64,000 nucleotides of DNA. Origin: Geosiphon pyriformis. Its lineage: Eukaryota > Glomeromycota > Glomeromycetes > Archaeosporales > Geosiphonaceae. The notes under the pieces were generated by a model, which did no database searches, was not told the origin of the DNA, and saw nothing but the letters and a program-made list of their open reading frames with translations. The position numbers were made by a program, and so were the translations under genes. The stretch's first letter is position 1. Every line of letters begins with the position of its first letter. Shown one piece after another: positions 3,451 to 30,290 of the stretch. Location: the NCBI GenBank assembly GCA_016748015.1, contig JAAOMT010000302.1, positions 1-64,000 of the forward strand, written 5' to 3'.

Positions 3451-3942
3451 TTAACCGGTTAACACCTTGATGAACCCGAGAATGCAAAGTGCTGTAATAA
3501 TTTTTTTGTTAAATCAAAAAAAAATGTTAAATATTGGGAGAGAGAGAGAGAGAGAGAAAGAGAAAGAGAAAAACCACTCACTAGATATGGCCATACAAAT
3601 TAAGACAAATAATATTGTATAAATATAGCCCCTTTTTGGATGTTGAATGAATAGAAGCGTTGAATGTCGATATTCAGGCGAATATTTGTATCGGTCCTAA
3701 TATTGAATTTGATAGTTTTTTTTTTCAAATTTCAACGTTCGACCTCTTAAAAACTTCTTTACAAGTTAAAAAAGATCAAAACTAAAGCTTACTTCATTAT
3801 TATGGAATCGAGGTATTATATGTATAATGGTCTCTTTTGCTTCTTGAGGACGATCTCGTACGTGAGCTTTTTCTGGTTCGAATGCATATGGTTGTGAAAG
3901 ATATGGTTCCGCTAGGAATGATGCTTGTTTCATTGCTTTCAT
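3451..3942 (-). CDS. Small membrane protein, family A/D/E, 101 aa (gene A)
   Basis: Three exons on the minus strand: 3793-3942, 3582-3696 and 3451-3491 (150+115+41 = 306 bases, 101 residues plus stop). Donors are GTAAGC and GTGAGT; acceptors are TTAG and ACAG. The start is the first ATG of the open exon; a second ATG follows three codons later. Residues 1-73 are hydrophilic and include ETIIHIIPR; residues about 74-98 form one transmembrane segment (YIYTILFVLICMAIS, then TLCILGFIKVL), with three residues after it and no signal peptide. The last intron cuts the transmembrane segment in phase 1. The inverted-repeat genes D and E share the ETI[I/V]xIxxPR motif, a phase-0 intron soon after it, the phase-1 GTGAGT intron and the C-terminal membrane anchor. 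I do not recognise the family. Topology is probably N-cytosolic, tail-anchored-like (inference). Confidence 0.75.
3536..3570. repeat. (GA)n microsatellite inside the last intron of gene A
   Basis: About 30 bases of alternating GA on the plus strand are followed by interrupted GAAA units. Read on the gene's strand this is a long CT-rich tract a short way downstream of the GTGAGT donor of the final intron. Confidence 0.85.
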
Positions 3943-4006
3943 TATGTCGTTTCTTTTAACTTGATAATTATTTGTTAAAATTTAATAATAATTTTAATAA
4001 TAATTA

Positions 4007-4037
<31 letters not shown>

Positions 4038-5562
4038 GATCCTTCAAAACCTGCTAAACAGCAAATTTTTGAAAAGCAGATTGAGAAGAAATTTACTGAA
4101 TATATAGCTTTCTGTTTTACCCTATTATTTACCTTCGATTGGGCTCAATCCTGCAGCACCTAAATAAAAGTGGTACCATGATATTTCTGTTTATCATTTT
4201 CACCAATGAAAGTATAATCTTTAATATTAGGATGATTCATTTTATTGGATTCATTTGTTGGAATTTCTCTCTAATTAAATTTCCAGATAAATCGGGTAAG
4301 ATTCTGAACCCCATTTACGATTTACTTTAGCTAAAACAAGCGAAAACGCTTCCAAGTGGAAATGAATGATGAACGACGCATAATGAGAAATATACATGTG
4401 GATTCGATATGTAAATCTTTTTTTTTTTTTTTTAAAAATAAAACAAATCGATTTCGTTTCATTTTTGTCATATTAATTCTACTTATCCCTAGAGTTTAGA
4501 AGTGAATAATCGAATTTAATTTTAAACGTTCAGATTAATATCACCGGTATTCCTAACAAAAAAATAATTAATCCCAATCAAAAACTATTATTTTTAAAAT
4601 TCTAATTTAAGATCGAGTCACGATTTTGACACTTTTCACCATCATAAATAATGTAAGTTTTGAGGTCATTTTAAACCAATAAATAAAAAAGATATTCGGA
4701 AAAAAGATTAAATAAGTGAAACAGGAGTTTTATATAACAGCCAAAAAAATTGAAATATTGTAGTTGTGAAAAACTTTTTTTTTTTAGCATTATCATCAAA
4801 TCATGCCAAATTAGTTACTAATTTCTTATCATATTAAAATCCCTGTTGGAATTGAGACTAGCGCGATTTATTATACAATGTACCATAAGAAATCTATTTG
4901 GTAGAACAAAATGATTGGATAATGAAATCTTTGAAACTTTTCATAATTAGTAAACTTTGTTTTGCTGGCAGTTAGGTTCCTAAAAAAATTTATTTCACAA
5001 GATTTAAATTTAAGCTAATAAAATATTAATGAAATTTAAAAAAAAAAAAAAAAAAAAATTTATTTGAATCTCGTAAAGAAATTTGTAAAGAAATTTTATT
5101 ACTGATAATTAAATAAAAAATTATTTATTTCTTTAACATTAAAACCTGATTGAAATTATAATGTGATTTTATTTTAAAAAAAAAAATTTACTTATCTATA
5201 ATTAAAATAAAAAAATAAATTTATTTGGCTATAAATGGTTGAATAAGTTTATAATAAATTCAGATTAAAATAAATTAAAAATAATTTAACTCTTAATACT
5301 GTTGAAAAAAATTCAGTATTTTTTAAACTATGAAATAAAAATAAAAATAAAAATAACTTTTTTATCAAAATATTTTAATTCACAATAAATAAAAGTAAAA
5401 GGGTTTGGGAAATATGACGTAAGTTATTTAATCTAGTATGGCCAATGCCATTCATTTAATAGCAGATGCATGTAACCGATTTTCTTTTAAGTCGATCAGT
5501 CACTATGATCCACAAAGTTTTATGATAAAATTTTTTTCATTGCCTCTAACAACCCATCTGTT
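3943..5562. other. Intergenic AT-rich DNA with (ATT)n and A/T homopolymers
   Basis: An (ATT)n microsatellite lies at about 4007-4037, and long A or T runs lie at about 4420-4433 and 5038-5058. The small open frames here are low in complexity. I see no supported gene. The stretch just before 3960 is the promoter side of gene A; the stretch before 5563 is the promoter side of the NTPase gene. Confidence 0.5.
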
Positions 5563-7891
5563 ATGATCAAACCTTTTTCAAAAAAAAAATTTCCAATTTT
5601 ATTCGTCAGAAATTGGTATTGTCAAATATTAAAAAGAATTTCGGCATACCAGTCAAGAAATGTCGCTCACGATGCCTATGAAAATTTCACACAACATCGG
5701 CAGCCAGATAATGAACGCGGGAAAAATACTTACCCCCAAAAATCATCTACCACTGAGAAACGAGATTTGAATGATCGGGACATTAAAAAGAGACCCAAAG
5801 AGCTTCTTAAACTTTCAAGTTACGTTACTCCTTCATTAAAAATTTTGACTTATGATCAAATTAGTATCGATTCGCAAGCAACTCAAAAAGAACCGTTTCT
5901 AAATCAATCCAAAGATAAAAATAGTTGGCATTTAAAGAAAAGTTCCGATTTCAGTCATGAACCATCATTAAAAAATTATTCAGCCAAAAATTATCATTCT
6001 ACGGAACGCCGCAAGCCTGAAAATTTCTCAAACATTCAATCCAAAGATTGGAGCCGAGACAATAAAGAGAAATTCAATCAGAGCCATCAACTTACAAGAT
6101 TATCTCAAATTCAAAACGAAAAATTCAATCATCGAGACCTGGAAAATCTATCTAATTTATCTCGGAGTCAAAGTTATGTAAATAAGCCTCAAAGTGCCAA
6201 GAAAGTCAAATTGGAAGAAAACTCTTTGAATGAGAGTAATCCAGCTCAAAATACTTTCAAAATCCAGTCAAAAGAGCGGATGACTGAAATCTCTGTAAAG
6301 AACTCGAACAAAATTCAAATTAAAAAGGTCAACAGTGATACCTCTGAAAAGGATCAAAGTACAGAGTCTATATTTCATTTTGAAAAATCAACGTTACAAC
6401 TCATAGATTTGGCTTACATAAATAATGATTTGCGACAAAAGTTGCAAGCCGTACTGGGTAAAGATTTATCAAGAGATATTTCAAAGCACAAGCTTAAACC
6501 TCAAATTGAAGAAAAAATTATGGATTTAAGGAAAATATACGTTGGTTAGTTCGAAAGCATAAAATTTTCAAGATTCAAATGACTCGAGTGACTAATTGAT
6601 CTCAATCAATACAATTTAATTTTTACCTTGGCTGTCCATTTTCAAAACATAAAAAGAAAATAAAGAGCCACCCCAACCTCCTGAGATAAATTGCAAATAT
6701 TATGTCACTCCTAAAATCTCCAAAAAAATAGTGGAAAGTCTACTCTCCACTGATTTTGATCATTCATTTCTAATCGAACATGTGGGTTCTGGCAAAACAA
6801 CAGCTCTGAAGGTGGCCAAATATCTACTTGAACAGAAAAAAAAAGTTCTGCCCATTTACTTGTCATTGGCTGAAATCAAGGCTCAGAGAATTGCAAGTCC
6901 AAGAATTTGGCGTCATGTTTTTGAACAAATTTCTAGTCTCACTGGAATTTCTGTTCAAGAAAGTTGGGAAGATTGCGTTTTTGCATTGCAAGAAGAGTTT
7001 CCAAATTATAAAATTCCAATCCTTCTTGATGATGCTGAGATACTTTGTAAATACGGAAAAAGTCCAATTACACGTGAGTTTCTAGAATTGCTGGAATATC
7101 GTCTAGTAAATGATCGAAACGAGTGTAGAACTCGAATATCTTTTCTACTGTGTGGGACACACGACTTTATGAATTTTTTGAAAACTCTGAAAACTTCCAA
7201 ACGTCTTTTTACGCGGCCACATCCTGACGGAAGGCCAACAGGTGATATACATGGCCATATTTTCGAAAGCCGTGATAGTTTACATTTTCAACCACAGGAG
7301 ATTCAGCTACTAATCAAGCAATTGAAAAATGAAAAGACAATAAAAATCAACGAAGGTGATTTCGCTAAAAAGATCTTCACACTCACAAAAGGATATCCTG
7401 ACCTAACAAGAATCTGTATTGAAGAGATTGAAAACTGTAGTGAAGATCGACAACCCAATAAACAGACTTCAATGACGGTTGACGAATATACCAACTGGAT
7501 CAACCAAGATAACAGACTTTTGTTGAAATTAAAAGAAACCACTCCATACAGGGAAATCTTAAAAGTAATTGTCACCAAAATTTCGACAAATCGCACGAAC
7601 CAGAGTATCTGTTTTTCAAAAACTCTTGAGGGTCCTTGGCTGGAATCTAAGCAGTTCAGGGCTAAGCTCTTAAGCCTTGGATTTCTCACTTTTGATGATC
7701 CTCAAAGGCACTACATACCTTTTAAATATGATTTCAAGGAACATGAACATGCAGAATTATTTTATCCACAAACTCCCTTATTATGGGCATTGGTAAATTA
7801 TTACATAAAGAAAAACTGCAATCCAGGATCTATTAAATGGCCACCTCACTGGGAGAAGTTGGGATTTTCACCAGAAGTCAGTGAAATCTAA
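5563..7891 (+). CDS. Large protein with disordered N-terminus and STAND/AAA-like P-loop NTPase domain
   Basis: Two long open segments, 5563-6549 and 6653-7891, probably form one gene. The second has no ATG before its P-loop, so it needs an upstream exon. A donor GTAAAG at 6458 with an acceptor at 6665 keeps the frame (895+1226 = 2121 bases, 706 residues), but the exact junction is uncertain. The N-terminal half starts with a basic, aromatic stretch (MIKPFSKKKFPILF) that could be a mitochondrial presequence, followed by about 250 residues rich in Ser, Asn, Lys and Gln, probably disordered. The C-terminal half has a Walker A (VGSGKTT, with Glu where the first Gly is usual), a Walker B-like IPILLDDAE, a sensor-like FLLCGTHDF, a TKGYPDL motif like TGGHP in STAND/AAA ATPases, and a final segment resembling a winged helix. 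Function and partners are unknown; a bacterial-style ATPase origin is possible. Confidence 0.62.
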
Positions 7892-9090
7892 GGAACAAAC
7901 TTTATAGATCGTTATAAAGGAATCTAAAATTTTTCAAAAGCTTTTTCAGAATTTTTGATTCAATAATCTTTTGTTTTCCAAGTCCTGTGATTTTATTTCT
8001 AACTAGTGAATTCATTCGTGAACTTCAAATAATACATAGGTTGTTTTCATGACTTTTGCCAAAGTTGGATAAAGTGTTTATCATCATATATAATTTTTTT
8101 AAAATGTCCACTGTTTTTCATATGAAAAATTATTTTGATTGGTAAAGTTTTCATTTAATCAAGTATTATTGGTACTTTGTTTAATGTTTCTATTTTAATA
8201 TATATTTCTTTAATCCAACTGGAAATTAAAAAAAGTTTAAAAAAAGGATTTGAGAAGAACTAATGTTTGAAAAAACATTATTAAAATTTTCAAAATTTAT
8301 TATTTTTCAAATTTTAGCATTGATTTTATTTATTTATTTTTAATACTAATTAGAATCCGACAGTATTTAGTGATGAAACAGTTTTTTTCAATTATTTAAA
8401 CTGTTAATGGAAGAATGACCAATTTGTAATATTTTTAAATTTCTTGAAAATTTAGAGATTCATTAAAAATAAAGATATTGTTCATAAGAAAAATTTATAT
8501 CACGTTTCTAGAAATCACCCAGTTTTTGAAACCACTAGTTTCTCATGAGATTATATTTTTTTTTAAATTTTAAACATCATTTTCAAAGAGAAATTGAAAT
8601 TTCGAATTGTTATTTCATCTTTCATCTTTCAACATTAAATTCTGATTTTCAAAAATTTCGATAATTATAAAATAAAAAAAAAGTCAATTATTTGATAATT
8701 GAATCAAATCTAGAAATACAACAAAAAGTGGTTTGTGTATTGAAAAGAAGTCATAGTGAGAGTCTCGAATTTCCAGCTCTCTTTTAGGAATTGATAAATA
8801 CAAAAATTTTACATTGGCGAAAATAATTATTTTTTGAATATTGATTCGATTAATTTTCTAAGAATGATAGTAAAAGTTTTTGTCATTTCTAATATTATCG
8901 TAAAACTAAAAATCGGGAAATCTTGAAATGGAAGAGTCCGTGCGGAAATTTGCTTGGTTGGCTGTTTGATAAAGATTTCCAGCTTTGGAAAAAGCTAACC
9001 TATGAAAATTCTATTCTTATCTGAGATTTTATTGTTGTCCATCGAAGCAAGTATTAGCTCTCAGAGTGTAAATCAATTCAAAAAGTTTCA
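7892..9090. other. Intergenic AT-rich DNA, nothing recognised
   Basis: This is the shared 3' side of the NTPase gene (+) and gene B (-), which converge here. It holds only A/T-rich low-complexity sequence and short repeats of TTCAAAATTCAAAA near 9138. I see no gene. Confidence 0.5.
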
Positions 9091-9604
9091 TTAATTGTCA
9101 ACATCTCTATGTAAAATAAATGTTAGAATAACTTTCAAAATTCAAAATTCAAAATCAAATGACTCACATCAAAATTGTTAATGTAATAGCCACAATCAAT
9201 GTGACTGGTACCAGTAGCAGCAATATATAAATACAACAAAACTCGGCACATGCAGCCATCCTTTGATTTCTAATTGCCCATCGATAACAAGAAGGCCACA
9301 AAGCCCTTAACCAAAAACATCCACTTTCTTGGGTAGCTATCCAATCATATTTTTTCTCCTCGTACTTGTCAATCACCAATGCAAATTCTGTTATGGAACT
9401 TTCACCTGAATATGAGTCTGTATCCCATCTTTGAATTATTTTCGTAGATTGGTTACAGGTGGTGATAGAATGCTTGGATGGAGATGATAGATGTGAGATG
9501 TGAGCTACTTCTGGATTGGGAAGATTTGGAAATTTTGAGTAACAAGGTTGGTAGGCTGGCTGTGGTATTGTGATCCTTAAAATTTCAGAGTATCTTTGTT
9601 CCAT
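9091..9604 (-). CDS. Small C-terminally anchored membrane protein, 150 aa (gene B)
   Basis: The main exon is 9168-9604 and a proposed 16-base terminal exon is 9091-9106 (453 bases, 150 residues). Without splicing, the same frame ends two codons later at 9164, giving 146 residues. I prefer the splice because the sequence at the end is a perfect GTGAGT donor inside the membrane segment, as in genes A, D and E. The start is ATG at 9604, although the frame is open further upstream. Residues 1-115 are hydrophilic with SSITEFALVIDKYEEKKYDW; a Cys- and Trp-rich stretch follows (about 108-128). The transmembrane part reads CCIYILLLLVPVTLIVAIT. The SSIT[D/E]xAxx[V/I]D[K/E]Y[D/E]E motif is shared with gene C. 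Family and function are unknown. Confidence 0.6.
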
Positions 9605-11600
9605 TTGATCAGAGTTTAGAGGTCCACTTGACAGAAAACTAGTGAACAAACAAACGACTTCAATTCACCACTCTATAAAATATTTCTTTAGTTATAACAT
9701 GTGAAAGAGCTACTAATCCTTTTAAAAACTCTTCCAAAAAAGTTTTTTTTTTTTTAAAAGCAAACCATCAGAAACTGTCAACATAATATGTTTGATCAAC
9801 CGTGTGAACTTGTGATGGGATGATTTTCAAATCAAATACCAAGAATGGTCGGAACCGGGATATTAAAACAACTTTCATGACAAGCGTTGACACCACAAGA
9901 GCGTCATAATAGGGGGATTCGAGGTTTTTCTGGAGTGACATGTTTCATTATGAATATAAATGAGACAGATGTAATAGATCATGTAACAGACTTCGACGGG
10001 AACTAAACTAGCTCATCCGTTATTATTTTGATTAACTATGACAAAAACAATAATGTGACTTTTTTGAGCCAGTGTTACCTTCACTATTGTCTTTTAATTG
10101 TTCCAAAATGAATGATAAATTCCATGTGAATTTTGAAGTTTTGAAAGAGAATCTTTGATTAGCTTAGCGAGTGATTAGAGTTGAAGTGCTCATAAATTTG
10201 TCGTTTCGTGAGAATTTGGGCAACCAGTTATGTAGAATCTCAAAAAAAGAGTTGATCGAATTAGTGTTTCGGACATTAATTTCTCCATCAGATTTCCATA
10301 GTAAGTTTAGGACGATGTGCAGGAAAGGTTTTGATGTATGGGAATCTAGAATGCTGCCTGTCAAAACCACGTTGAACTTTTTATCCTTTCACACTTATTT
10401 AAATTTAATCTTTTATTAAAATGTGACTGATATGACTTTTCATCAAATATTTTGAACTCGTGCCTATATCTCGTTAAGGTTTATTCACTTTACAGAGCTC
10501 AAAAATAAAATATTTTCAATGAAATTCCTCTTTTTATTTAAGAACAAAAGTCAATTTTACAATGGCAACGTGATGAAAAATCTTAAGGTCTCTAGTAGAT
10601 TAATCCTAAACATGAGTTTGATGAGTTTTTTTTTTCGGGTATGAGTTAAAATATCATTACACCAGCTACCCAATTTCTCTTATATTGTAAAAAAATATAA
10701 AATAAAAAATATTTAAAAATAATTCCTCATAATCACAAAAATCACATGATTTTAAGGAATTTTGAATTTTCATTCAATTGGGAAGTAATTTTATCAATTT
10801 TATTGAAAACTAATATTTTTAAAATTGACAAATAATAAAATGAATTTGAGAATTTGAGCAAAAAAAAAAAGCAATCAAGCTTCCAATTTATTTAGGCTAA
10901 AAAATAAATAAAAAAGTAATAAATTTTTATTTAAAATTTTATAATAGAAAAAATTTTAAATTCATAGATTCTCATTTTAAATCAATAAGTTTGTTGAGGA
11001 AAAATCTTTTGGATCATTATTTGCCTAATTCTACTGAATTCAATATTTTTTAACTTTTTTTTTTATTTGTTAAATGTAAAATGATCTGTGATTCGAAAAT
11101 ACAATTTCAATATTTATCCAAATAATTTCTATAATCTGACAATTAATTAAATAAAAGGAAAGTGAAATTATTTAATTTTTAAAATTTAATAATATTTAAT
11201 TATAAACATGAAAGAAATAGTTATAAATAGCATTTTAACAAAAAAGACGTCGTCGTCAAAATTACATATTTTTTCTGTAGCAAAGAATAAAAAATAAAAG
11301 TTCAAAATTTGTTTGCATGTAATAATTATTTTCTAAAATTATAGAGAAATTCTGTACAAAAGGAGTGGTAGTGTATTAAAATTATTGATTTTTTGTTGAG
11401 AACCAAATTCCTTTATTGAATAAATATTACAGTTTTTTTTGTTTTTTTTAACAAAAAAATTTTAAATATATCAAAAATGAAAAAGCATATATATTTAAAG
11501 AAAATTTTCTATTAAAATTTTCATTTATTCATTATTATGACCTAATTTCAAGATTATCAACCAGTTTGTTATATATAAAATACGAAAAAAATGTCGAGAT
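9605..11600. other. Intergenic; one weak coding candidate at 10171-10419
   Basis: The stretch is mostly AT-rich. The least AT-rich part, 10140-10380, holds a plus-strand open frame whose middle (for example RISKKELIELVFRTLISPSDF) has protein-like composition. It starts with a non-ATG codon, overlaps an equally long antisense frame, and matches no family I know. It may be an exon of an unresolved gene or a relic. The remainder shows nothing. Confidence 0.3.
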
Positions 11601-11841
11601 TATGATATCTCGCCATTGAAGGATTAAACGTGACCAAAAAGTAAAAATAGAATTAAGATCACAAATATTATTTTAATTCTGACCGGTTCGGTCAACGAAC
11701 GAAAAGGTCTAAATATATATAAATATAAATGCTTTAAAATTTCACAAAATATAAAAATAAATATAAAAATTTTTTCTTTATTTCATAAAACGTTTTTAAA
11801 TAAATCTTTTTATTTCAATATCTCAGATTTCACAAAAAAGA

Positions 11842-12600
11842 CGCTCCCGAATATATACATTGCGAAAAGAAGGATATACGGCCAGCGAAATTGCTGTATC
11901 AGAGCAGGTAGCTTTGGTTTCTGTTCTAAACATTTGCAAAAATAAAGAAGAAACTGGGAGTTTCATTGATAAACCAAAACCTGGTCTTTAGGATCATTAT
12001 GAACGAAATGCCATCCGATTGATAAACATCTAGAAAATTTTCCACTGCCCTTGAAGTCTAAAACCAACTCCAAGCTCAACTAGAACTCCATTTATTTTTT
12101 TTAATGGAAAGCGTAAGGTGCGTATACTCTAGTGGCACAGATTTTGTACCAAAATTAAGGACAAAAACGTCGCATGGCTTGAGCATTGAATGATTGGTGA
12201 CTCCTGTCTGAGGAAAGCAAGCACCAGTTATTCGGGTCAGAAGGGCAAAAATTGATGGCAGATTATGACGTATATATATTGAATAATAATATATATTTTG
12301 GAGATAATGCTGAATAAAGACAAAATTTTTTCCAGCAGGATATGATCAGACCACACACACTTCCAAAAAAGCAAGAAATTTGGTTTTGCGAAAATGATAT
12401 CTTATTACTAGATTGACCATCTCAGTTTCCTGACTTAAATTCAATCAAGCATTTATTGGGAATGACATGTATATGCGTATGCGAAGACTTTCTGGTCCAC
12501 TTTCCAATAAAGATGAGCTATGGGAAAATTACAAATTGACTTGAATAACATCGAAATCAATTTTTGTGAAAGTTTAATTCATTCAATGTCAAAAAAAGGG
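11842..12600 (+). mobile_element. Fossil Tc1/mariner transposase
   Basis: The N-terminal helix-turn-helix part is readable at 11842-11991 (TLRKEGYTASEIA, then ETGSFIDKPKPG), followed by a stop. The DDE end is readable from 12330 (FQQD, then ENDILLLD, stop, PSQFPDLNSIKHLLG). In relatives the last motif is SPDLNPIEHLW, so the catalytic Glu is Lys here. Many stops and frameshifts separate these islands. The copy is dead and older than the one at 35-36 kb. Terminal inverted repeats were not identified. Tc1/mariner elements move by cut-and-paste at TA dinucleotides. Confidence 0.72.
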
Positions 12601-12683
12601 TTTAAGGATGTAAGGTGGAAATACAGATCATTAGTTTTAGCTTTGTTGTAATTTAATGTGTGTGTTTTTTCTACCAGCTTTCA

Positions 12684-12790
12684 ACACATACATACATACA
12701 TACATACATACTTACTTACATACTTACTTATTTACTTACTTACTTATTTACTTACTTACTTACTTATTTACTTACTTACTTACTTACTTA

Positions 12791-12834
<44 letters not shown>

Positions 12835-12845
12835 TTTACTTACTT
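12684..12845. repeat. (TTAC)n / (CATA)n tetranucleotide microsatellite
   Basis: About 160 bases of CATA repeats pass into CTTA/TTTA repeats with occasional C-to-T variants. Because the unit is four bases without stop codons, all three plus-strand frames stay open and encode Tyr-Leu-Thr-rich periodic peptides; none is a gene. It lies shortly after the fossil Tc1 copy. Confidence 0.95.
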
Positions 12846-13215
12846 AAGGAGAATCTTGTCTTAAAATTTTGTTTTCCAAATAGGTCACAATGCACATATT
12901 TAAATTATTTTTGTTATTTTAAGAAATGAATTTCATTTATTTTTTTAGCTGCATGAGCAAACTGCATTGTCATTTTCGGAATAGAAAAATTTAATTCAAA
13001 ATTTATATTTTTTTGGAATCTAGAAAAAAAATTGATGATTTGTAATTTTTCTTGTAATTGACATGATATGGGCTGTTCCCATTCATTCAAAAATTACCAT
13101 AAATTAATTTAATTGTAACATGTTACATGAACACAAAGTATGCGCTCGGAAATAGATAAAAATGCCCGAGGTAATCGTTTGGATGCAAAATTGAAAAAAC
13201 TTAAATTTAGTCACA

Positions 13216-13575
13216 ATGACAAATAAAGGAATTACTGTCCCATCTGCTACACATCAAAATTATTGGAAAAGAATGTGGGATAACCCTTCATCCTCGAGTA
13301 AAAACAATCAAATACCATCAAATAATAGTTCAATCACTGATCTAGCTTCACGTGTAGACGAATACGATGAAATTGTTAATGATGAAAATCAAATACAAAT
13401 CCATGTATCATCAGATAACACATGCTGTTGTATGATGTTTCTCGAAAACCAGGCTACAGGTCGAAATAAACTTTACTTTTGGCTTTCTCTTTCAGTTTTT
13501 TTCGTTATGCTATTTCTGTTACCATGCATCTTTTCCTGGACGTCACAAGGAAGACTTTCTTATTTTAAAACTTAA
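13216..13575 (+). CDS. Small C-terminally anchored membrane protein, 119 aa (gene C)
   Basis: This is an intronless open frame from a clear ATG. Residues 1-80 are polar, with a Ser/Asn-rich stretch and SSITDLASRVDEYDE, a motif also seen in gene B. A CCC cluster follows at about 70. Residues about 87-106 form a transmembrane segment (LYFWLSLSVFFVMLFLLPC), followed by about 13 residues. There is no N-terminal signal. The overall plan (polar N-terminus, Cys cluster, single membrane span at the C-terminus) matches gene B, from which it is separated by the fossil Tc1 element and lies in opposite orientation. Family and function are unknown. A GTAAGT shortly after the stop could be a 3' UTR intron. 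Confidence 0.6.
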   Translation: MTNKGITVPSATHQNYWKRMWDNPSSSSKNNQIPSNNSSITDLASRVDEYDEIVNDENQIQIHVSSDNTCCCMMFLENQATGRNKLYFWLSLSVFFVMLFLLPCIFSWTSQGRLSYFKT

Positions 13576-13649
13576 GAGATCATGGGGGTAAGTGTTTTTT
13601 TTTTGCAATTTAACTTTTTTAGATTTAAAGATTGAAAAATTAATTATTT

Positions 13650-13684
<35 letters not shown>

Positions 13685-14771
13685 ATTATTATTATTATTT
13701 GCAATGGTTTTTAAAGCTTACTCATTCTGATTAAGGCATGGAGTTTGGAAACAATCATTATGGGAACCGCGAAATGACAGGACAATAATTTTCGATAATA
13801 TTCATTAATATTCAACTTACTCGGCTCGATTAATAACTTGAAAATTTCATTTGATCAATTAATAATTTGAACATTTTACTCGTAAGTACACATAATTTCC
13901 AAGACAAAACCTTTTTTCAAATATAGAATATTTTAAAAGTTTTTTGTCCATAGGTAATTATTCACTAGATAAACTTTTTCATGTACATTCACTAGATAAA
14001 CATCTCAATTTATTGCATTATTTCAAAACTAAAAATTGTTTATAAACCTTCTAAATGAAATTTAATTTTACAATTTAAATTTTGAAAGAAATTCTCACCG
14101 TTAATATCATTGTAATGAATTAATCTCCGTAAAATACATTAAATATAATGAAATTTAAATTTAATAACTCTTTTAAGCATTATTTCGTAGCAAATACCCC
14201 TCTTTTATTATGTAATTGGGCGTATTTATCAAGCAAATTACCAAAATATTTAATATAACAACCAAAAACCTGATTGAGAAAAATTAGATTATTGATGACA
14301 AGCAACTTGGAGACATATTTTATCTCAAGAAGCTTCGTTAGATTATTATTAAATTAACTTTGAAATTATAAAAAATTATTTTTGTAAATTTTAAAAATTA
14401 TATGACAATAAACTTGGTTTTAATATAATAATAGATATATATATATATATATTAAATTTTATAATATTGTTATAATATTTTTGATTAAAGTTAATAATTA
14501 TAAGAATAGTTTAATTTTTTGATTTAAAATAAAATTTATTTTAATAAAATTTATATTTTGTTAAAATTTTTAATCAAAATTCAAAATACAATTAATACAT
14601 TTATATTAAAACTATATTTATCATTAATATATTTTATTGTTTTAATATGAAATTATAATACATTTATATTAAAACTATATTTATCATTAATATATTTTAT
14701 TGTTTTAATATGAAATTATAATACATTTTGATTAAATATTTTTTAATTTTTTAACTAATATTTTTAACATT

Positions 14772-14803
<32 letters not shown>

Positions 14804-20455: not shown

Positions 20456-21743
20456 CTATACCGGATTTTCACCAGACATGACTCCTTCTGGAAGCAAGGA
20501 TTCATTTGAGATAAATTTTTGTTTCCTTTGCCTCTCATCATGATGAAATCCATGACATTCAAAAATTTCGTCTGCTTGGTCTCCGGGTTGACAATCACAG
20601 TTTGGTCTTATCCAAAATTCAGTTTCATGATGCTGAAGGAGATTTTCACCACTCCCAGAATCAGGATAGTGTGGCACATGATCGTTACCATGAGTAATTC
20701 TAATAACATCTAGCACTTTATTTACTAAGCGTGCAAATATAACGTTCCCAATTCTTGGAGCTCCAAAAGTAACCACTTGTGTTTCAAAACTTGATAGCTT
20801 AACACCTGGAAGTCTATTATTCTGATCGCTGAGCATTGATTCGATTCTCCAGGTCAAACCCGCAATCACGGCGTAGGCTATATTACAGAAAAAGATAGTA
20901 TTAGAAAATAATACTGTACTTTATAATTTTTTCAAAAGAGTTAAACTTAGTTTCTGAACTCATATGCTTACCACCACCAACGCCATGACCAGTGAAAATA
21001 ACCTTTTTTATTGGGACATTCCTCTCTCTCAGTATCGATTTCGCGATTGTAGAAAGTCTAGGTCTCATTGCCATTACGTCTTTGTACCATGATTCTTCCA
21101 CACGTATCAATGCATTAGGTTGGAGTTGTGGCACCATATAATACCTTAAAGTTGTTTTTCTTGTTGACCATTGAGCTTTTGACAGTTGGACCCCTAGAAT
21201 TTAAAAGCGATTTGAAATTTTTAGCCCCTTATTAATTTGTGAGAAAAGACCTTAAATAATGGAAGTAAATCAGCAAATATTTACCAGCAAAGTACATTAT
21301 TAAAGATTGTGAGACCCTCTCATACATAAAATCAGCTATTATAGAATAAGATTCTCAGAAAATTCTGTATGTAAAATTCATCGGTGCAATTTGTTTGAAA
21401 AGAAACCTTTCACATGACCTCCCGGTATTTCTTTGCCTATTTCGTTTATTGACTGACAATAAGCAACATATGAAAATTGTGCCATGAGCGCGATCGTTTG
21501 TAAAAATTGTTGGCTTCGCTGAGTTTGTTCGAGAGGTAATTTTGTTGGATATTGAGATGCACGTTTAGTCAAACTTTCAAATGTATTTGTGTCCCAGTAG
21601 TGATGTTCTGCAGCTTCAAGATTATATGTATAATTTATTGACGAACTGAAATTTAACCTTCTTAAACTGAATTTTGCAGCAAAGCAAAACGGCAACAGGA
21701 TTAATATTAAAATTGTGAAAAGAAAAAAATTAAAAAAGGCCAT
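20456..21743 (-). CDS. Secreted class-3 lipase-like protein with Ser-to-Gly nucleophile, 343 aa
   Basis: Four exons on the minus strand: 21407-21743, 21285-21335, 20972-21193 and 20456-20877 (337+51+222+422 = 1032 bases). The start ATG at 21743 is followed by a clear signal peptide (MAFFNFFLFTILILILLPFC); the frame is open further upstream but the added residues would bury the signal. The fold is the fungal class-3 alpha/beta-hydrolase: KKVIFTGHGVGGAYAVIAG is the nucleophile elbow, TQVVTFGAPRIGN the next strand, ITHGNDHVPHYP carries the acid (Asp269) and HHETEFWI the histidine (about 286-287). In active lipases the elbow is GHSLGG; here the Ser is Gly200 (codon GGC), so the triad lacks its nucleophile. 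A hydrolase role is therefore doubtful; a binding or structural role at the cell surface is possible. The exon 1/2 join is the least certain. Confidence 0.85.
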
Positions 21744-22181
21744 TTTATTCTGAAATGAAGAAGGGATCGCAATGTAGGTGAATCTAAACAATTCCCTTTC
21801 TTCCACGATATTTTCTTGGAAATATTTCAACGAGTACAATCTGGTATTAAAACCTGACTGGTTTATGGATGCTTCCTTTTTGCGATAATTAAATAGGTGA
21901 GAGATCTTTTCATATTATCATTTATCATTATTAAAATTTGACTTTTTGCCGTAAATCACAATTATTTGTCAATTTAGCAAAAAAGACAAACAAATCTGAA
22001 TAAGTTTCAGATATAATTTATGTGAGTTTATCATTTGTTAAATACCACCCAGTTTGCTTATATTTTTTAAAGTTGGTATTTTTTTTTTGATTATTGATAT
22101 CAGAGCACCGGGCAGCAAAAGGTTTGAATTGGTTTTTGATAAAATGTGCAAAATATTAGCATTAATAATAACAACAATAAC

Positions 22182-22224
<43 letters not shown>

Positions 22225-23289
22225 CTAACAAAATGCCTATCACTGTAACTTTCAATCAAATCTAAAATCTGTTAAAAGATAAATTGCACTGGTAATAAAA
22301 AAAAAGATATGAGCAGATATCATTATTATGTGGCAAGTTTAATTATGCGCATTTCGTGAATCTTTTTGTCACTGTTTGATATAAAAAATATTCGCAAATT
22401 TGCAACATTATCTCGAGACATTATTTTATTGTGACATGTAGATTTACTCTAAACCTAAAATATCAAATACATTATGCAAAATAAAGTTGTCAACATATAA
22501 TAACGGATGATTATGTGTAAAAAAAAAAAAAAATTCTTGGAAAAACCCATAAAATTATAGAATAGAAGTTACAAGTGTTCAAGTCCTAAAGGAAATTGGA
22601 ATGTATTTGAAAATTACATGCAAAGAATTTTCCAATAGTTTAAGTTATTAAGTCAATATCCAACTTTTAATAAATTATGGTTCGAATTGAATTCTTGGAG
22701 TCTTTAACTGAGTTGTTGCGATTTTTACTGATCAAAACAGAACTCGATTGGCTCAAGTCAAATTTGCTATATAAAAATATAATATCCCAATCTTACTAAT
22801 CTTGAAGTAAATTGTAGAATCGAAATATTAAATCGACAATCAAATTAACTTTTTATTTCATTGACAATTGACGAAACATCAAATCGTTTATTCTTTATTA
22901 TTGACTAAAAAGCCTAAGTGTTCAATTTGAAAAGAATCTGTTAAGCTATATTAACTCTTCCTCTCCTCAAAGAAAAACCTGGTTAGATGGTTGACAAGTG
23001 AATATATATGATAAAAAATTTAAAGAATTTCCAAAGCTAACTTTAGTTTATCTCACAAATATACAATTCAGCTCATTTTCTTACTAGTAGAGCTCAAATA
23101 TTAGAAAACTTAATTTCGTTTTCATGAATAATAAAAATTAGTCAAAGACTTAAAACCTCTGTCTAAGGAATTAAAGTTATTTTATTAAATGTTTAGGCCC
23201 ATGTCTATTTTCCCATAATAAAATTCAGGTAAAACTAAAATACATATAAATATCCGCTTATAAATAACTTTTTTAAAACATATTTTGAT
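21744..23289. other. Intergenic between the lipase gene and the inverted repeat
   Basis: This is the promoter side of the lipase gene. It contains a poly-A run at about 22518-22533 and an (AAT)n microsatellite. No gene or RNA was seen in the remainder. Confidence 0.5.
22181..22223. repeat. (AAT)n microsatellite
   Basis: A run of about 14 AAT units, preceded by AAC/AAT variants. The poly-isoleucine open frames on both strands here are products of this repeat. Confidence 0.9.
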
Positions 23290-25260
23290 AATAATAATTA
23301 ATAATAATTAATAATATAAAAATGATAATTTTAACTACTGCACGTTAATTTTGCTTTATTAAATTCTTATTTGGCTTGTGGTCTTCTAATTTTATGAAAT
23401 GTATCTATGGATGGGTGGATATATACCCTAGGGTTGTAAAGATTCAAGGTAATAGATTTAATGTTCGCAAAGGGAAAGTTTTAAAGAAAATATTCTTTAT
23501 TCATTTTAAATTCGAGGATTTTAGATCGGGTTGGGTTGGTCATTAAATAAATGCTTTTACGACACTTAGGATAGATATTGCTAAATTATAACGAGAAAAA
23601 ATATTTTCGTTAGCAAAAATTAAGTATTTCATCCGATCTGCTGCTAAAGACTCACCAATTAAGCTAATGCTAATTAGCCAAATCACAACCTTTAGAACAA
23701 AGTAAGTTTTTGGCTTTATTTGATGAGAAAATTCTAAATCAGGTTGTTGGGGACGATGATGATGAAATGCTTCCTAAAAAAGATATTTTAGATAGTGACT
23801 TTGATTATTAATAAATATTCGAAAATCGTTTTGCTATGGTAAACTGAAATTTACCCGTGGCAATTTGATAAAAACTATGGTCTCCTGAGAATTCAGACAC
23901 TCAAATTTTTCTCGGGATGGATATAGGGCTCGAGCACACATTTTTGAAAATGGCTGATCTGATTCTAAAGCTTCTAAATCTTCTTCGTAGCAAATGTGAC
24001 TAAATTGTTGTTCTAGGGGAGAAATTAAAGAATTTCATGTGATTTATTAAAATTGTTTAAGCCATTAATCTTAAAGATATGTCCGATCCTCAGCATTTAA
24101 AAGCAAAATTACCTTTAGAAGCTGAAGAATTCTGTTTAGAATATACCATGCTCTGTCTTTGTATAGCCGCCGGTAGGGAAGAAATCGTCACGGTTCTTGT
24201 TAACCGACCTTCATTGGAACTTCCTTGTTCCATATTCATATTCGGGTATTATTTGTGCTTTTAACGTAAAAGTAGTAAAGGAAGGAAGGAAGGTTTTATT
24301 TTGGGAGATGATCTTAGTAAGGAAGTGGATCTTGTCTTCTAAAACATTTAAAAGTTAGCTTGAATTCAAAAGGTCATGAAACCAATTAGATGGCGCTTTT
24401 TTATATGAAAATTAAAAGTTGATATAAAAGAATGAAATAGTTTTGCTAGCTTATAGTCTCAAAGTTTACACCAATCAAATGAAGTAGAAATAGATATTAT
24501 GCAATATGGCAATATGATTGATTGGCCCCTAAATGAAGATTCTTCAAAATCTCTCCCCTAACCAATACTCCCTACTGCTCACTAAGCCAATTTGCAGTAT
24601 GCTCTATTGTGGCCATTGTAATCCGCCTTCTCATACTTAATACCATTCATTTATAATAGCGATAGCAAGCTCGGGTTCAATAAACTATGATTTCAATAAT
24701 CTCGGAACTTCTGATCGAATGAAAGATCATCCTGCGTCAAATACAATGCTGGGTAAATGAGTATAAATAATTTGGCGTAATGGTGAGACTGAATGTGTAT
24801 GCCACACTAGATAACAAGACAGAATTAACCTGCATGCTTAGCAAAGTTTCTATCTATTTTCAGAAGTCCCGTGGTGCGCAAATCTTGCTGCAGGGCGTTG
24901 TATGTTTTCAGTTTCGGCTATATTATAAAAGCTAAATGGTAAATCTGTAATATCACAGCGAGAAAAAATATAATAGAAAATTTAAAAAAGTATTATAATT
25001 TCTTAGCCAATCCTAAATTAACCCATTGACGTTAATTTTGATATTTTTAACTTTTTTTAACTTGCTGTGTATCCTAAAATTTAGTTAATTATTCTACCAA
25101 AGAGTCCTAACGATAAGACTTATTTTTTAAAGTGTAACCCATCATTTTTTTGAAAAGGATAATCTATATTGAACTTTAGACTTCAATAAATGCTTTTTAA
25201 CCTGTGCATACAACATGAACTTACATGTTATTATAATCTTTTAAATAAGAAAAAAGTAGC
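23290..25260. repeat. Left arm of a large inverted repeat
   Basis: Read in reverse complement, this stretch matches 28010-30010. Matching landmarks include the region around 23340-23400 against 29930-30000, the gene exons at 23543-24239 against 28955-29655, a GGGAGATGATC block near 24303, and a CTTTAGACTTCAATAAATGC block near 25175. Identity is patchy: almost perfect over exons 1-2 and intron 1 of the gene, much lower elsewhere. Arm limits are approximate. Confidence 0.85.
23543..24239 (-). CDS. Small His-rich membrane protein, family A/D/E, 146 aa (gene D, left arm)
   Basis: Four exons on the minus strand: 24113-24239, 23855-24012, 23656-23773 and 23543-23580 (127+158+118+38 = 441 bases). 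Donors are GTAATT, GTAAAT and GTGAGT; acceptors are CCTAG, TTTAG and TTTAG. Residues 1-95 are polar (start MNMEQGSSNEGRLTRTV; acidic YEEDLEALESDQPF; then ETIVFIKLPR). Exon 3 opens with EAFHHHRPQQP and ends in a membrane segment, VVIWLISISLI, completed by exon 4 (AISILSVVKAFI, then stop). The last intron splits the membrane span in phase 1, exactly as in gene A. The protein is probably tail-anchored-like with a cytosolic N-terminus. Its partner copy is gene E in the other arm, oriented away from it. Function is unknown; His clusters suggest metal binding but nothing proves it. Confidence 0.75.
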
Positions 25261-28009
25261 ATAGTAAAGTTATTCTGCCATGTGGTCGAAAATACATGTT
25301 TATCACGTGAAATTAACTATACACTGGCTATAACTGCTTTATGGAGAAAAAATCATAGCTTATTCAGAATCTATTTACAATTACTATTAAGTGTTTATTT
25401 AAAATTAATAACAAGTTATATGATTTTTAGTTTATAGATTATTATTTGAAAATTTTTGCATTTTTTTATATTTATTTCTTTAATCAACCCACATAACAAT
25501 TTTATTTCATTCTATTTATTTTTAATTTATCTCATTTATCATATTTTTTAATAAATTTATATGCTACTTTTGTTTTACGGATTTTATGTTAAAAGAAAAT
25601 CAAAATATTTATTAAGAAAACTTTTCTACGAATCAAACTTTAAAACTTAAATGATAATAATATTATTCATACAATTAATTTTAACCCGATAAAAGAATAA
25701 ATTTATTTGTATTAGATGTCTTCTTTTTTATTTTAAATGTTATGAATTTATTCAAAAAAACAGAAATTAAAGTATAAAATAATTTGCTTATACTTTGAAA
25801 AAATACTTAGCAATAAACAAACTTATTACTGAAACAATTCTTAGCATCTAAAGTTTAATTTTTTAACCAAATTAATTTTTAATATTCTAATTAATTCAAA
25901 TTTTTTTTAAATTAAAAATTAAATTATTGTTAAATGCAAACTTTTTATATTTTACATATGTAATAAAAAATTTTTTTTTTAATTATTTTGAAATTTTTTT
26001 TATAAAAATACTTATGTAATCAAGCAATAACATATAATTTATTTGCTATTTATTATATTAAAAAATGCATTTAAAAAATCTAATCAATTGTGATAATTAT
26101 ATATATAGAAAATTATTTTAAATAACAAAATATAAAAATTTCTTGATAATTATAATAAAATTTAATAACATATTACCATGAATTAATTATAATAATAAAA
26201 CTTCAATAAAAAATAAATTTATCAATTTATTATCAAAAAAAAAACCAATAATTAAAATGTTAATTTTGTTTATTTATAATAATTCATACTTTTTTCTTTT
26301 TATTTATTTATTTTTTCATTTATTTAAGGCATTTCAAATTCATAAATATTTTTGGAACATAATATAATAAAATTATTAAAATTAATTAATGTTTTTTTGT
26401 GCTTTTGTACTTTATTTTGCAGAATTGGCCAAATATTACATATTTATTATTCTGACCATTTACGCAAAATAAACTATTTAGAGACGATTTAACTATATTT
26501 CTATTCTATTAAAATGTAATAACTTAAAACGTATCTTTAATTATTTGTATAAATATTGTCAAACAAAAATTTTTTTACATTATTTTTTATCATAGTTGTT
26601 GTTATTAGTTAAATTTTGAAATGAAAAAATAAAATAATTTTGATTTCTTATTATTGAAATTAATATTACGTTATTTTATTTTATTTTATTTTATTTTATT
26701 CGATTTTTATTATAAAAATTAAAATTAAAATTTATTTTTATGTTTGAAAATATTTATTTTTGAAAAAAAATATATTTTAATAATAATTTATTAAAAATTA
26801 TTTGTAATATAAAAATTTACATTTTTATTAACAAAGATTTTTAATCAAAACAAAAAAAAATTGTTATTGTCATTTAAAAATTGCTATTTTTATTACATCA
26901 CATTTTAAACTAATATGAAATATATTCAAGCTTACTTTTTCAAAAAGATTGCTGTTTTGTAAAATTTTCAAATGTTTCATGTTGCAATATTTTTTTAATT
27001 TAGAAATATTAAAATACAATAAATTCTTAAAATTATTTATAAAGCTTTTTAAAAAAATATATAAAAAAGAAACACATTCTTGTTTTTTCTTTTAAATATA
27101 TTTAATAGTTTTGAGAACAAAAGAAATTTTATTGAAATAAAATTCCCTTATAAAAATTATGAATTAATTCAGAGCTCTCAAATATATTTTTCTTTCGATA
27201 ATAACCTTCATATTTTTTAGAAAAATTATTATCATTTTACGACACTTTATTAATCTTGATGTAAATAATATTTGTGGCAGATTTTTGCTGGAAACCCCTT
27301 AATATAAAATATTAATTTATTTTAACTTTTATTGTATTTTTTTATTTATGATTGAAATATTAAAAAATTATAATTTCAATTATAATTTTTGGGTTGATTA
27401 TAAGTATTTTAAAGTTGTTTGGCAACTCGTCAAGTTAAAATGAAGTAATTTTTTCCACTCCTTTTTGGTTATTGAAGATATAACATGCAATATAAACAAC
27501 TAAATATTTCAATTTATCCGAGTAATTAAAATGGCAAAATTTGGATATGAAAAAAGAACCCAGATTTGACTGGGTTACTTGAATTGCTGAAAGTAAATGA
27601 AAATAGATAAGCAGCAAGATACCTAAAATTAGAGATTTGAATTTAAATAAAGAGAAAAGAATCAAATGATGATGTTCCTTTTTATCTCATTAATTTGAAA
27701 TTAAGTCATGTTTGCATTTTAAATGTTAGATAAGGCAAAAGAGATAATATTTCATTTGTTGCTTTTAAGAAAAGTTTTCTATTATTCAGGAAATTCCCAA
27801 AGAACAGTTGAAATTGATACACAAAAATTGTAAAGGTGAAGTATATAGATACAATAAAATGTTGATGGCAGCTTTGAGAGATGAAAATCAAAGTGTAAGC
27901 CTTAGTTTCTACTGCATAAAACATTTATAGCTAAAACACAGGCTAAGTTCATGTGAGAGACATGCATTTTCTCCCAGATGGCAAAATAACTTAAAAATTT
28001 TACCTTTTC
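25261..28009. other. AT-rich spacer between the inverted-repeat arms
   Basis: The spacer is extremely AT-rich, especially 25.4-27.4 kb, with a (TTTTA)n run at about 26672-26700 and many A/T homopolymers. Two minus-strand open frames at 27435-27665 and 27706-27924 are hydrophobic and low in complexity and have no support. As the genes in both arms are transcribed outwards, this spacer would hold or flank both promoters together with the inner ends of the arms. Confidence 0.5.
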
Positions 28010-30010
28010 TTATAGATTATTATTTGAAAGATTTGGAATGACATGTGAGCTCATGCTGCATACACAGGATGGAAACTTTTAGAAAGCATTTATTGAAGTC
28101 TAAAGTTCAATATAAATTAACCTTTTTCAGAAAGAGATGGGTGACGCTTTTGAAGAAAAACTAATCGTCAGAACTCTTTGGTAGAATAATTAGTATTTAT
28201 TTCCCCTAATTTAGCCCTAACCTGAAACGGACAACACACTACAGCAAGATTTTAAAAAGATTAAAATTAAAATGCACACCACGGGACTTCTAAAAATAGG
28301 AAAAAGTTTTTCATGCAGGTTAATCCCGTGCATGCGTTCCGGGGTTTTTTCTTAATATCTGCACATTCTTATTCAGTCTCGCCATTACGCCAAATTGTTT
28401 TTTATTTGACATTTCGTAACATTGTATTGCCTATCATGCAGGATAATCTTTCACTCGATCAGAAGTCCCTGTTTTACAAGAATATCATGGATTGTTCCCG
28501 AGATTGTTTAAATCATTGTTTTTTTTGAAAAAAAAAAATCTTAACCCGAACTTGCTATCGCTATGGTATTAAGTAATTAGATATGGCTACAACAGGGCAT
28601 AATGCAAATTGGCTTAGCGAGCAGCAGGGAGTATTGGTGAGGCGAGTGATTTTAATGCTTAGTTGCACAACGTCAACTTCTTCATCTGATTGATGTACAC
28701 ATAAAAACTAATACCTTCCTCGTCGTCTGACGAAAATCTATTACTTAGGCTTAGAGACTATTAGCTAGCTAGCAAGACCTTCTTCATTCTTTTAGTTTTT
28801 ACCGAAAAAAAACGCGAACACATTGGTTTCATGACCTTCTTGACTTCAAGCTACTTTTAAATGCTTTAGAAGATAACATTCATTTCCATACTGAGGATCA
28901 TCTCCCCTCCTTCCTTGCAACTTTTACGCTAATACCACAAATAATAAATCAAATATGAATGTGGAACAAGGAAGTTCCAATGAAGGTCGGTTAACAAGAA
29001 CCGTGACGATTTCTTCCCTACCGGCGGCTATACAAAGACAGAGCATGGTATATTCTAAACAGAATTCTTCAGCTTCTAAAGGTAATTTTGCTTTTAAATG
29101 CTGAGGATCGGACATATCTTTAAGATTAATGGCTTAAACAATTTTAATAAATCACATGAAATTCTTTAATTTCTCCCCTAGAACAACAATTTAGTCACAT
29201 TTGCTACGAAGAAGATTTAGAAGCTTTAGAATCAGATCAGCCATTTTCAAAAATGTGTGCTCGAGCCCTATATCCATCTCGAGAAAAATTTGAGTGTCTG
29301 AATTCTCAGGAGACCATAGTTTCTATCAAATTGCCACGGGTAAATTTCAGTTTAGCTTAGCAAAACGATTTTCGAATAATCAAAGTCACTATCTAAAATA
29401 TCTTTTTTAGGAAGCATTTCACCATCATCATAATCATCACCATGACAATTTAGAACTTTCTCATCGAATAAAACCAGAAAATCACCTTTTTCGAAATATT
29501 GTGATTTGGCTAATTAGCATTAGCTTAATTGGTGAGTCTTTAGCAGCAGATCGGATGAAATTTTTAATTTTTGCTAACGAAAGATTCTTGAAAAAAATTT
29601 TTCTCGTTATAATTTAGTAATATCTATCTTCAGTATGGTCAAAACGCTCGCTTGATGAACGCCGGCTGATAGTACTATCAACAAAATTTCGTTTCGAAAA
29701 TCTCTATTCGACGACATTCGTACTCGTGAACATATTGAACGATACCAATTCGTTTTAGTAACCAACCTACCAATAGACATAATAATAGCGGTACTTTATG
29801 CTATGACTTAACCCGAACCGACCCTAAATTAGAATACTTTTCGAAGGATTTTTTCTTTCGTGCCGAACATTAAATCCATCCATTTATAAAAAATATCCAA
29901 ACATACATACATCCAATCCACTTCACATAATTAGAAGACCATAAGCCACATAAAATTTAATAAAGCAAAAATAACACGCAGTGGTTAAAATTAAAATTAA
30001 AATTATTATT
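28010..30010. repeat. Right arm of a large inverted repeat
   Basis: This is the reverse-complement partner of 23290-25260, in the same order of landmarks and carrying gene E on the plus strand. It differs from the left arm by several indels, including about 150 bases after the gene's stop (about 29660-29810) that the left arm lacks. The arms are therefore diverged duplicates, not a simple assembly fold-back. Confidence 0.85.
28955..29655 (+). CDS. Small His-rich membrane protein, family A/D/E, 147 aa (gene E, right arm)
   Basis: Four exons: 28955-29081, 29182-29339, 29411-29531 and 29618-29655 (127+158+121+38 = 444 bases). Exon borders, phases and splice sites match gene D. Residues 1-95 differ from D at only a couple of positions. 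Exon 3 differs more: EAFHHHHNHHHDN, seven His in a short stretch where D has three, then SHRIKPENHLFRN and the membrane half NIVIWLISISLI. Exon 4 gives VISIFSMVKTLA and the stop. Reading exon 3 through its GTGAGT donor would give an alternative, non-membrane C-terminus ending at 29617; I prefer the splice because it completes the membrane span and is shared with genes A and D. Changes concentrate in whole codons with the frame kept, which suggests both copies are or were functional. Function is unknown. Confidence 0.75.
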
Positions 30011-30202
30011 ATTGTTATTAACATCTATTTTTAAGATTTTTTTAAAAGTTGTTTATGACCATATATTTACATGTATTTTGGGTTGATCTGAAATATCTTT
30101 TAAATAAAATAAATATGGGCCTAAAAATTGGTTATATTTCAGACATTAAAGGTATTTGGACAATGTTAACGGAATCTTTTTAAGGTTCTAACAGATTTAA
30201 TG

Positions 30203-30290
30203 AAGTGACATAGTTCATTAGATAGAGCGTTTGAGCTTTTAACTAATTTTTTCTTATTCATGAAAACGGAAATCAAGTTTCGGATATTGG
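30203..30290 (+). other. tRNA-Lys(UUU)-like relic (tRNA pseudogene or SINE head)
   Basis: TAGTTCATTAGATAGAGCG at 30211-30229 resembles a tRNA D-arm (A box), and CTTTTAA at 30236-30242 is a perfect Lys-UUU anticodon loop at the right distance. The anticodon stem pairs only in part, no proper T-arm is found, and the acceptor stem does not pair. It is not a working tRNA. Confidence 0.35.

What the first reader, a model, noticed from the sequence alone, without database searches (positions are those of the whole stretch)
3451..29655. Undescribed family of small tail-anchored-like membrane proteins (genes A, D, E)
Genes at 3451-3942 (-), 23543-24239 (-) and 28955-29655 (+) encode 101, 146 and 147 residues. 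They share an ETI[I/V]xIxxPR motif, a phase-0 intron soon after it, a single C-terminal membrane span, and a phase-1 GTGAGT intron cutting that span, followed by a 38-41 base terminal exon (TLCILGFIKVL, AISILSVVKAF, VISIFSMVKTL). Ordinary ORF scans miss them because every exon is short. I know of no named family with this plan.
Basis: partly seen in the sequence, partly recalled or inferred. Interest (0 to 1): 0.72.

Follow-up and report, generated by a model that had tools for sequence, protein, structure and literature searches.

The report
Small fungal tail-anchored-like protein genes
Three short intron-split genes near one contig end of a fungus seem to encode related small proteins with a single membrane-spanning tail, with no relatives detected elsewhere in that genome; probably a young, fast-changing family of an ordinary kind.

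Summary
Genes A, D and E are present at the stated coordinates; spliced they encode 101, 146 and 147 residues. D and E are not independent: they lie in an inverted duplication, exons 1-2 being 99% identical, probably by gene conversion. Homology of A to D/E is marginal by sequence alone (BLASTP E 0.004; shuffles 2.5-10%). It becomes likely when aligned on the last intron: the ungapped register that puts the phase-1 GTGAGT intron at the same codon is the best of 61 for both pairs. A scan for this architecture over 264 kb finds exactly A, D and E, and nothing in ten resampled controls. Pfam, NCBIfam and PDB gave nothing significant; protein searches of the 124.7 Mb genome found no further member. 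I read them as young tail-anchored proteins, predicted for the ER or secretory membrane. B, C and an ORF on contig C175 look like a second family of similar layout. Glomeromycotina origin is not confirmed.

The parts
3793..3942 (-). gene A exon 1 (150 nt), start codon to phase-0 intron; holds ETIIHIIPR
   Evidence: only match of the 9-residue motif pattern in the genome
3582..3696 (-). gene A exon 2 (115 nt), first part of the membrane span
3492..3581 (-). gene A last intron, 90 nt, GTGAGT...TTACAG, phase 1
3451..3491 (-). gene A terminal exon (41 nt): ...TLCILGFIKVLTG*
24113..24239 (-). gene D exon 1 (127 nt)
   Evidence: 99% identical to E exon 1
23855..24012 (-). gene D exon 2 (158 nt); ends in ETIVFIKLPR
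23656..23773 (-). gene D exon 3 (118 nt), first part of the membrane span
23581..23655 (-). gene D last intron, 75 nt, GTGAGT...ATTTAG, phase 1, CTAAC 29 nt before the acceptor end; open if retained
23543..23580 (-). gene D terminal exon (38 nt): ...AISILSVVKAFI*
28955..29081 (+). gene E exon 1 (127 nt)
29182..29339 (+). gene E exon 2 (158 nt); ends in ETIVSIKLPR
29411..29531 (+). gene E exon 3 (121 nt); His-rich stretch and first part of the membrane span
29532..29617 (+). gene E last intron, 86 nt, GTGAGT...ATTTAG, phase 1, CTAAC 40 nt before the acceptor end
29618..29655 (+). gene E terminal exon (38 nt): ...VISIFSMVKTLA*
23004..25352 (-). arm of the inverted duplication that holds D (outer limits of six BLASTN pieces, approximate)
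   Evidence: inverted pairs also
27906..30405 (+). arm of the inverted duplication that holds E (outer limits of six BLASTN pieces, approximate)
   Evidence: inverted pairs also

Best explanation
A, D and E are real protein-coding genes of one small, young, fast-evolving family. A is an older, shorter paralogue; D and E are a later inverted segmental duplication whose 5' halves were recently made alike by gene conversion. Each mRNA is spliced so that the last intron is removed from inside the codons of the only membrane span, leaving an N-terminal part, one very hydrophobic helix and a 4-5 residue tail with one lysine. Such a protein would be inserted after translation as a tail-anchored protein, most likely into the ER or secretory membrane through the GET route, with the variable His-rich N-terminal part facing the cytosol as a binding or adaptor surface. 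Shown by sequence: exons, phases, duplication, C-terminal hydrophobic segment. Inferred: expression, splicing, gene conversion, insertion route, destination, topology and adaptor role.
For: Spliced frames fit with GT-AG introns. Architecture-only scan: the only 3 hits in 264 kb are A, D, E; 0 in 10 resamples. The intron-anchored ungapped register is the best of 61 for A-D and for A-E; over the 20 residues before the intron plus the terminal exon the score is reached, in two shuffle schemes, by 8 and 14 of 20,000 shuffles for D and by 28 and 62 of 20,000 for E. D versus E: one exon gap, 3 nt and in frame, while the two intron gaps are 10 and 11 nt; gap openings per 100 aligned bases are 0.23 in exons, 0.81 in introns, 2.3 and 3.2 in the near flanks. 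CTAAC branch-like sites in the last introns of D and E (the consensus is recalled). Span GRAVY 2.41, 2.78, 2.75 with tail charge +1 in all three; yeast ER tail-anchored proteins have GRAVY above 1.75, and low tail charge favours the ER in mammals (PMC5450235, passages). N-terminal 19-residue maxima are 0.03, 0.41 and 0.41.
Against: Whole-protein similarity of A to D/E is marginal: 25-99 of 1000 local shuffles reach it, and for the parts before the span 401 (D) and 116 (E) of 1000. Substitutions in exons 3-4 show little purifying selection: dN 0.224, dS 0.33, codon positions 12/8/12, so decaying genes are not excluded. The scarcity of exon gaps is partly due to the near-identical tract. Intron 1 of A has no branch-like site within 60 nt of the acceptor and intron 2 of E has none. 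No transcript data; no homologue outside this genome could be sought.
Confidence: 0.6

Rival explanations
1. D/E are real genes but A is unrelated: its resemblance is chance among small proteins that end in a membrane span.
Against: Same phase and same codon of the last intron in the best ungapped register; exons of 115, 118, 121 nt before it and 41, 38, 38 nt after it; all within about 26 kb, with no other such hit in 264 kb.
Confidence: 0.2
2. D and E (and perhaps A) are decaying duplicates or not translated; the frames are remnants.
For: dN/dS about 0.7 and no third-position excess in exons 3-4; exons 3 and 4 of D and E are 84% and 66% identical while intron 3 is 95%.
Against: No stop or frameshift in either copy; the only exon gap is 3 nt; conserved splice borders.
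Confidence: 0.15
3. The last intron is a coding stretch, kept at least in some transcripts, so the proteins have a longer or alternative tail.
For: D's last intron is 75 nt, a multiple of three, without a stop; retained it adds 25 residues inside the span. In E and A retention gives other C-termini. Alternative tail anchors made by splicing differ in targeting in SLMAP (PMC2712456, abstract).
Against: E's 86 nt break the frame and lose the last exon; GTGAGT donor and CTAAC in D and E; A has a junction at the same codon.
Confidence: 0.1

Closest known systems
Tail-anchored membrane proteins (GET/TRC clients) as a functional class
   Same: Single, very hydrophobic C-terminal span, very short tail with low charge, no N-terminal signal-like segment
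   Different: No sequence family shared with a known member was found; insertion and topology untested
SLMAP with alternatively spliced tail anchors (PMC2712456, abstract only)
   Same: Splicing acts on the anchor-coding part of the gene
   Different: An unrelated vertebrate protein (recalled); there alternative anchors are used, here only the presence of an intron-like stretch is shown
Second local family: B (window 9604-9167, -), C (13216-13575, +) and an ORF at C175:519757-520188
   Same: Small proteins of 119-146 residues with one C-terminal span; B may also have a terminal GTGAGT intron
   Different: Own shared stretch SI(T/I)(D/E)xAxxxDxY(E/D)(E/D) (read by eye); profile comparison with A/D/E finds no relation

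Membership tests
Tail-anchored membrane proteins | One membrane span close to the C-terminus | tested here: met
   3 of 3 proteins by Kyte-Doolittle; 5, 4 and 4 residues after the best window
Tail-anchored membrane proteins | No N-terminal signal sequence or other span | tested here: met
   Kyte-Doolittle only: N-terminal maxima 0.03, 0.41, 0.41, and one segment in all; no dedicated predictor was run
Tail-anchored membrane proteins | N-terminal part in the cytosol, post-translational insertion | not testable with these tools
   needs experiment
Tail-anchored proteins of the ER | Highly hydrophobic span (yeast GRAVY above 1.75) and low tail charge | tested here: met
   GRAVY 2.41-2.78, tail +1, span limits set by eye; rule from PMC5450235 passages
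Any named Pfam or NCBIfam family | Score above the curated cut-off | tested here: not met
   Pfam: only DUF2813 for A at E 0.094, 12.5 bits against a cut-off of 21; none for D and E. NCBIfam: none for A and D; E was not given
B/C/C175 family | Detectable profile similarity | tested here: not met
   hhalign probability 0.2 (percent), one column aligned; both profiles hold only 3 sequences
The A/D/E family itself (for A) | Motif ETI[IV]xIxxPR | tested here: not met
   A has ETIIxIxPR, one residue short
The A/D/E family itself (for A) | Phase-1 last intron at the same codon of the membrane span | tested here: met
   best of 61 ungapped registers for both pairs

The most novel reading that the evidence does not exclude
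The first 30 kb of this contig is a nursery of fast-evolving tail-anchored proteins (A, B, C, D, E, in two families), in which the intron inside the membrane span is a regulated switch: splicing makes the anchor, and retention gives a different tail (in D an in-frame 25-residue insertion), so that one gene could feed different membranes or a soluble form.
Probability: 0.08. Interest if true: 0.55.

Novelty: new member of a known kind. Interest (0 to 1): 0.3.

Why it matters
If transcripts confirm the models, it is a small family that ordinary open-reading-frame scans miss, with an intron placed inside the membrane span and with duplication and probable gene conversion still visible. It would matter mainly as an example of how young membrane proteins arise and as a warning for annotation. 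It changes no known principle, and relatives outside this genome are unknown.

Tried and rejected
These patterns were written from the genes themselves, so their rarity is no independent proof.

Known families: Pfam, NCBIfam and PDB by sequence give only weak matches, none significant.

One family for all five genes A-E: not supported. B, C and the C175 ORF hang together: for C-C175 9 and 3 of 3000 shuffles reach the score, for B-C 12 and 43 of 3000, but for B-C175 only weakly, 101 and 119 of 3000 (two block sizes each). Other C hits and the second C175 hit looked unrelated (L018 and L040).

A further coding exon in the arms upstream of D and E: short matching frames only, in several frames and on both strands, so read as non-coding similarity.

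Glomeromycotina as origin: the 18S gene differs by one base each from primers AML1 and AML2 and by four from AM1; GLOM1310 has no close site (7 mismatches). These primers do not cover every lineage of the group (recalled), so this does not exclude it; no lineage was assigned. An aldehyde dehydrogenase frame was compared with PDB chains for a hint of lineage and gave none that I used.

A first pattern search (6 places) served only to learn the size of the genome. No tRNA was found in the window (bacterial setting). Paper searches gave listings from which nothing was used.
Full report
What was checked. A (101 aa), D (146 aa) and E (147 aa) are open from ATG to stop, all eight introns are GT-AG, and the last intron is GTGAGT in phase 1 in 3 of 3, followed by terminal exons of 41, 38 and 38 nt. 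The exons before it are 115, 118 and 121 nt. Each protein has one segment above a 19-residue Kyte-Doolittle mean of 1.6, at the C-terminus.

Corrections. A's motif is ETIIHIIPR, so it lacks one residue of ETI[IV]xIxxPR, which D (ETIVFIKLPR) and E (ETIVSIKLPR) fit. The phase-0 intron follows PR directly in D and E but comes five codons later in A. A also lacks the first, phase-1 intron of D and E.

D and E are copies. They lie in arms of an inverted duplication, about 23004-25352 and 27906-30405 (six BLASTN pieces; inverted pairs). Exon 1, intron 1, exon 2 and intron 2 are 99%, 100%, 99% and 97% identical, exon 3 84%, intron 3 95%, exon 4 66%; the flanks, in 100-base steps, are mostly 48-88% identical, with one step all gap and one of three aligned bases. 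A near-identical tract with sharp ends, and a second alike block from the end of exon 3 into intron 3, between more diverged stretches are best explained by recent gene conversion; this is inference. In exons 3-4 (51 codons) dN is 0.224 and dS 0.33, with differences 12, 8 and 12 by codon position, so purifying selection is weak at best. The only exon gap is 3 nt; the two intron gaps are 10 and 11 nt.

Is A related? Whole-protein BLASTP gives E 0.004 for this single comparison, 17 of 68 identical. Against shuffles that keep local composition, 25 to 99 of 1000 reach the score (six runs); for the parts before the membrane span 401 (D) and 116 (E) of 1000. So sequence alone is marginal and the motif adds little. 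The intron gives better evidence: of 61 ungapped registers the one that puts the two last introns at the same codon scores best for A-D and for A-E, and over the last 20 residues before it plus the terminal exon 8 and 14 (D) or 28 and 62 (E) of 20,000 shuffles, in two schemes, reach the score. Over the whole of the two exons the numbers are 79 and 84 (D), 98 and 205 (E) of 20,000.

Is the plan more than chance? A scan of C342:1-264000 (12,583 of the bases N) for a phase-0 intron, an exon of 85-160 nt, a phase-1 GTGAGT intron and a short last exon with a membrane span over the junction gave three hits, A, D and E, from 41 GTGAGT sites; ten third-order Markov resamples gave none. The limits were chosen knowing the genes, and 264 kb is about half of this 548 kb contig. 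A second scan, which allows other donors and phases but asks for 120 open bases before the donor (so that A and D, with exons of 115 and 118, fall out), gave E, B and one place at 118850, against 0, 1, 0, 1, 0 and 0 in six resamples.

Relatives. In the 124.7 Mb genome, protein searches with D, E and A list 6, 6 and 2 places, all of them exons of these genes; the search works exon by exon and scores only the best candidates, so remote members can be missed. Pfam gives nothing for D and E and a sub-threshold DUF2813 match for A; NCBIfam gives none for A and D; PDB sequences give nothing below E 0.49, for D alone or the profile of the three. Paper searches: 'tail-anchored' with 'Glomeromycotina' none; with 'arbuscular mycorrhizal' and 'Rhizophagus' one review on effectors (listing only); 'small transmembrane proteins' with 'arbuscular mycorrhizal fungi' none; Glomeromycotina, lineage-specific, transmembrane and gene families two papers that look unrelated (listing).

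Mechanism. The span GRAVY is 2.41 (A), 2.78 (D) and 2.75 (E) over cores that I delimited by eye, and the tails KVLTG, KAFI and KTLA carry +1. Yeast ER tail-anchored proteins are marked by GRAVY above 1.75, and a hydrophobic span with low tail charge supports ER targeting in mammals (PMC5450235, passages). So ER or secretory membrane is the best guess. The part before the span holds 5 (A), 5 (D) and 10 (E) His, several in a run just after the phase-0 intron of D and E; a cytosolic binding surface is a guess only. No disorder predictor was run.

The last intron. Retained, it would leave D open with 25 added residues, and give A and E other ends. Alternative tail anchors made by splicing differ in targeting in SLMAP (PMC2712456, abstract). 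I keep this as the most novel reading, unproven.

Neighbours. B and C, in the same 30 kb, with an ORF on C175, look like a second small family with a C-terminal span. B's stop codon overlaps a GTGAGT donor; if a 61 nt intron (9167-9107) is removed the end becomes ILIDVDN and the protein 150 residues. No profile link to A/D/E was found.

Origin. The 18S gene carries NS1 and NS31 exactly, AML1 and AML2 with one mismatch each and AM1 with four; primer letters are recalled, those of AML2 being also found in papers (listing). This does not support a typical arbuscular mycorrhizal fungus, nor exclude every lineage of the group, and I name none.

Verdict. Gene structures that look real, one probable small family, ordinary in kind, unnamed in the libraries searched.

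Noticed in passing
window 9604-9091 (-), gene B: 146-residue ORF with a C-terminal span; its stop overlaps a GTGAGT donor, and a 61 nt intron (9167-9107, CTAAC 16 nt before the acceptor end) would give a 16 nt last exon and 150 residues.
   Followed up: partly
window 13216-13575 (+), gene C, and C175:519757-520188 (L017 1372-1803, stop to 1806): C and a dispersed ORF on C175 share SI(T/I)DxAxxVDxY(E/D)(E/D) and a C-terminal span; with B they look like a second family.
   Followed up: partly
window 23816-24242 and 28952-29378: 427 nt inverted arms 99% complementary inside a much more diverged duplication: a likely gene conversion tract that ends close to the start codons.
   Followed up: partly
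C320:1044700-1046600 (L047): 18S rRNA gene; its AML1 and AML2 sites differ by one base each, against the assumption of a typical arbuscular mycorrhizal fungus.
   Followed up: partly
window 5509-7888 (+): Two neighbouring frames, one with a weak Aip3p/Bud6 N-terminal match (20 bits, cut-off 27) and one with an AAA_22 ATPase domain (35.1 bits, cut-off 27).
   Followed up: no
window 35199-35741 (-): Frame with a DDE_3 transposase domain.
   Followed up: no
C342:118850 (+): Possible further gene with a terminal intron in a C-terminal span (GTGGGC donor, phase 0); six resamples gave 0-1 such hits each, so it may be chance.
   Followed up: no
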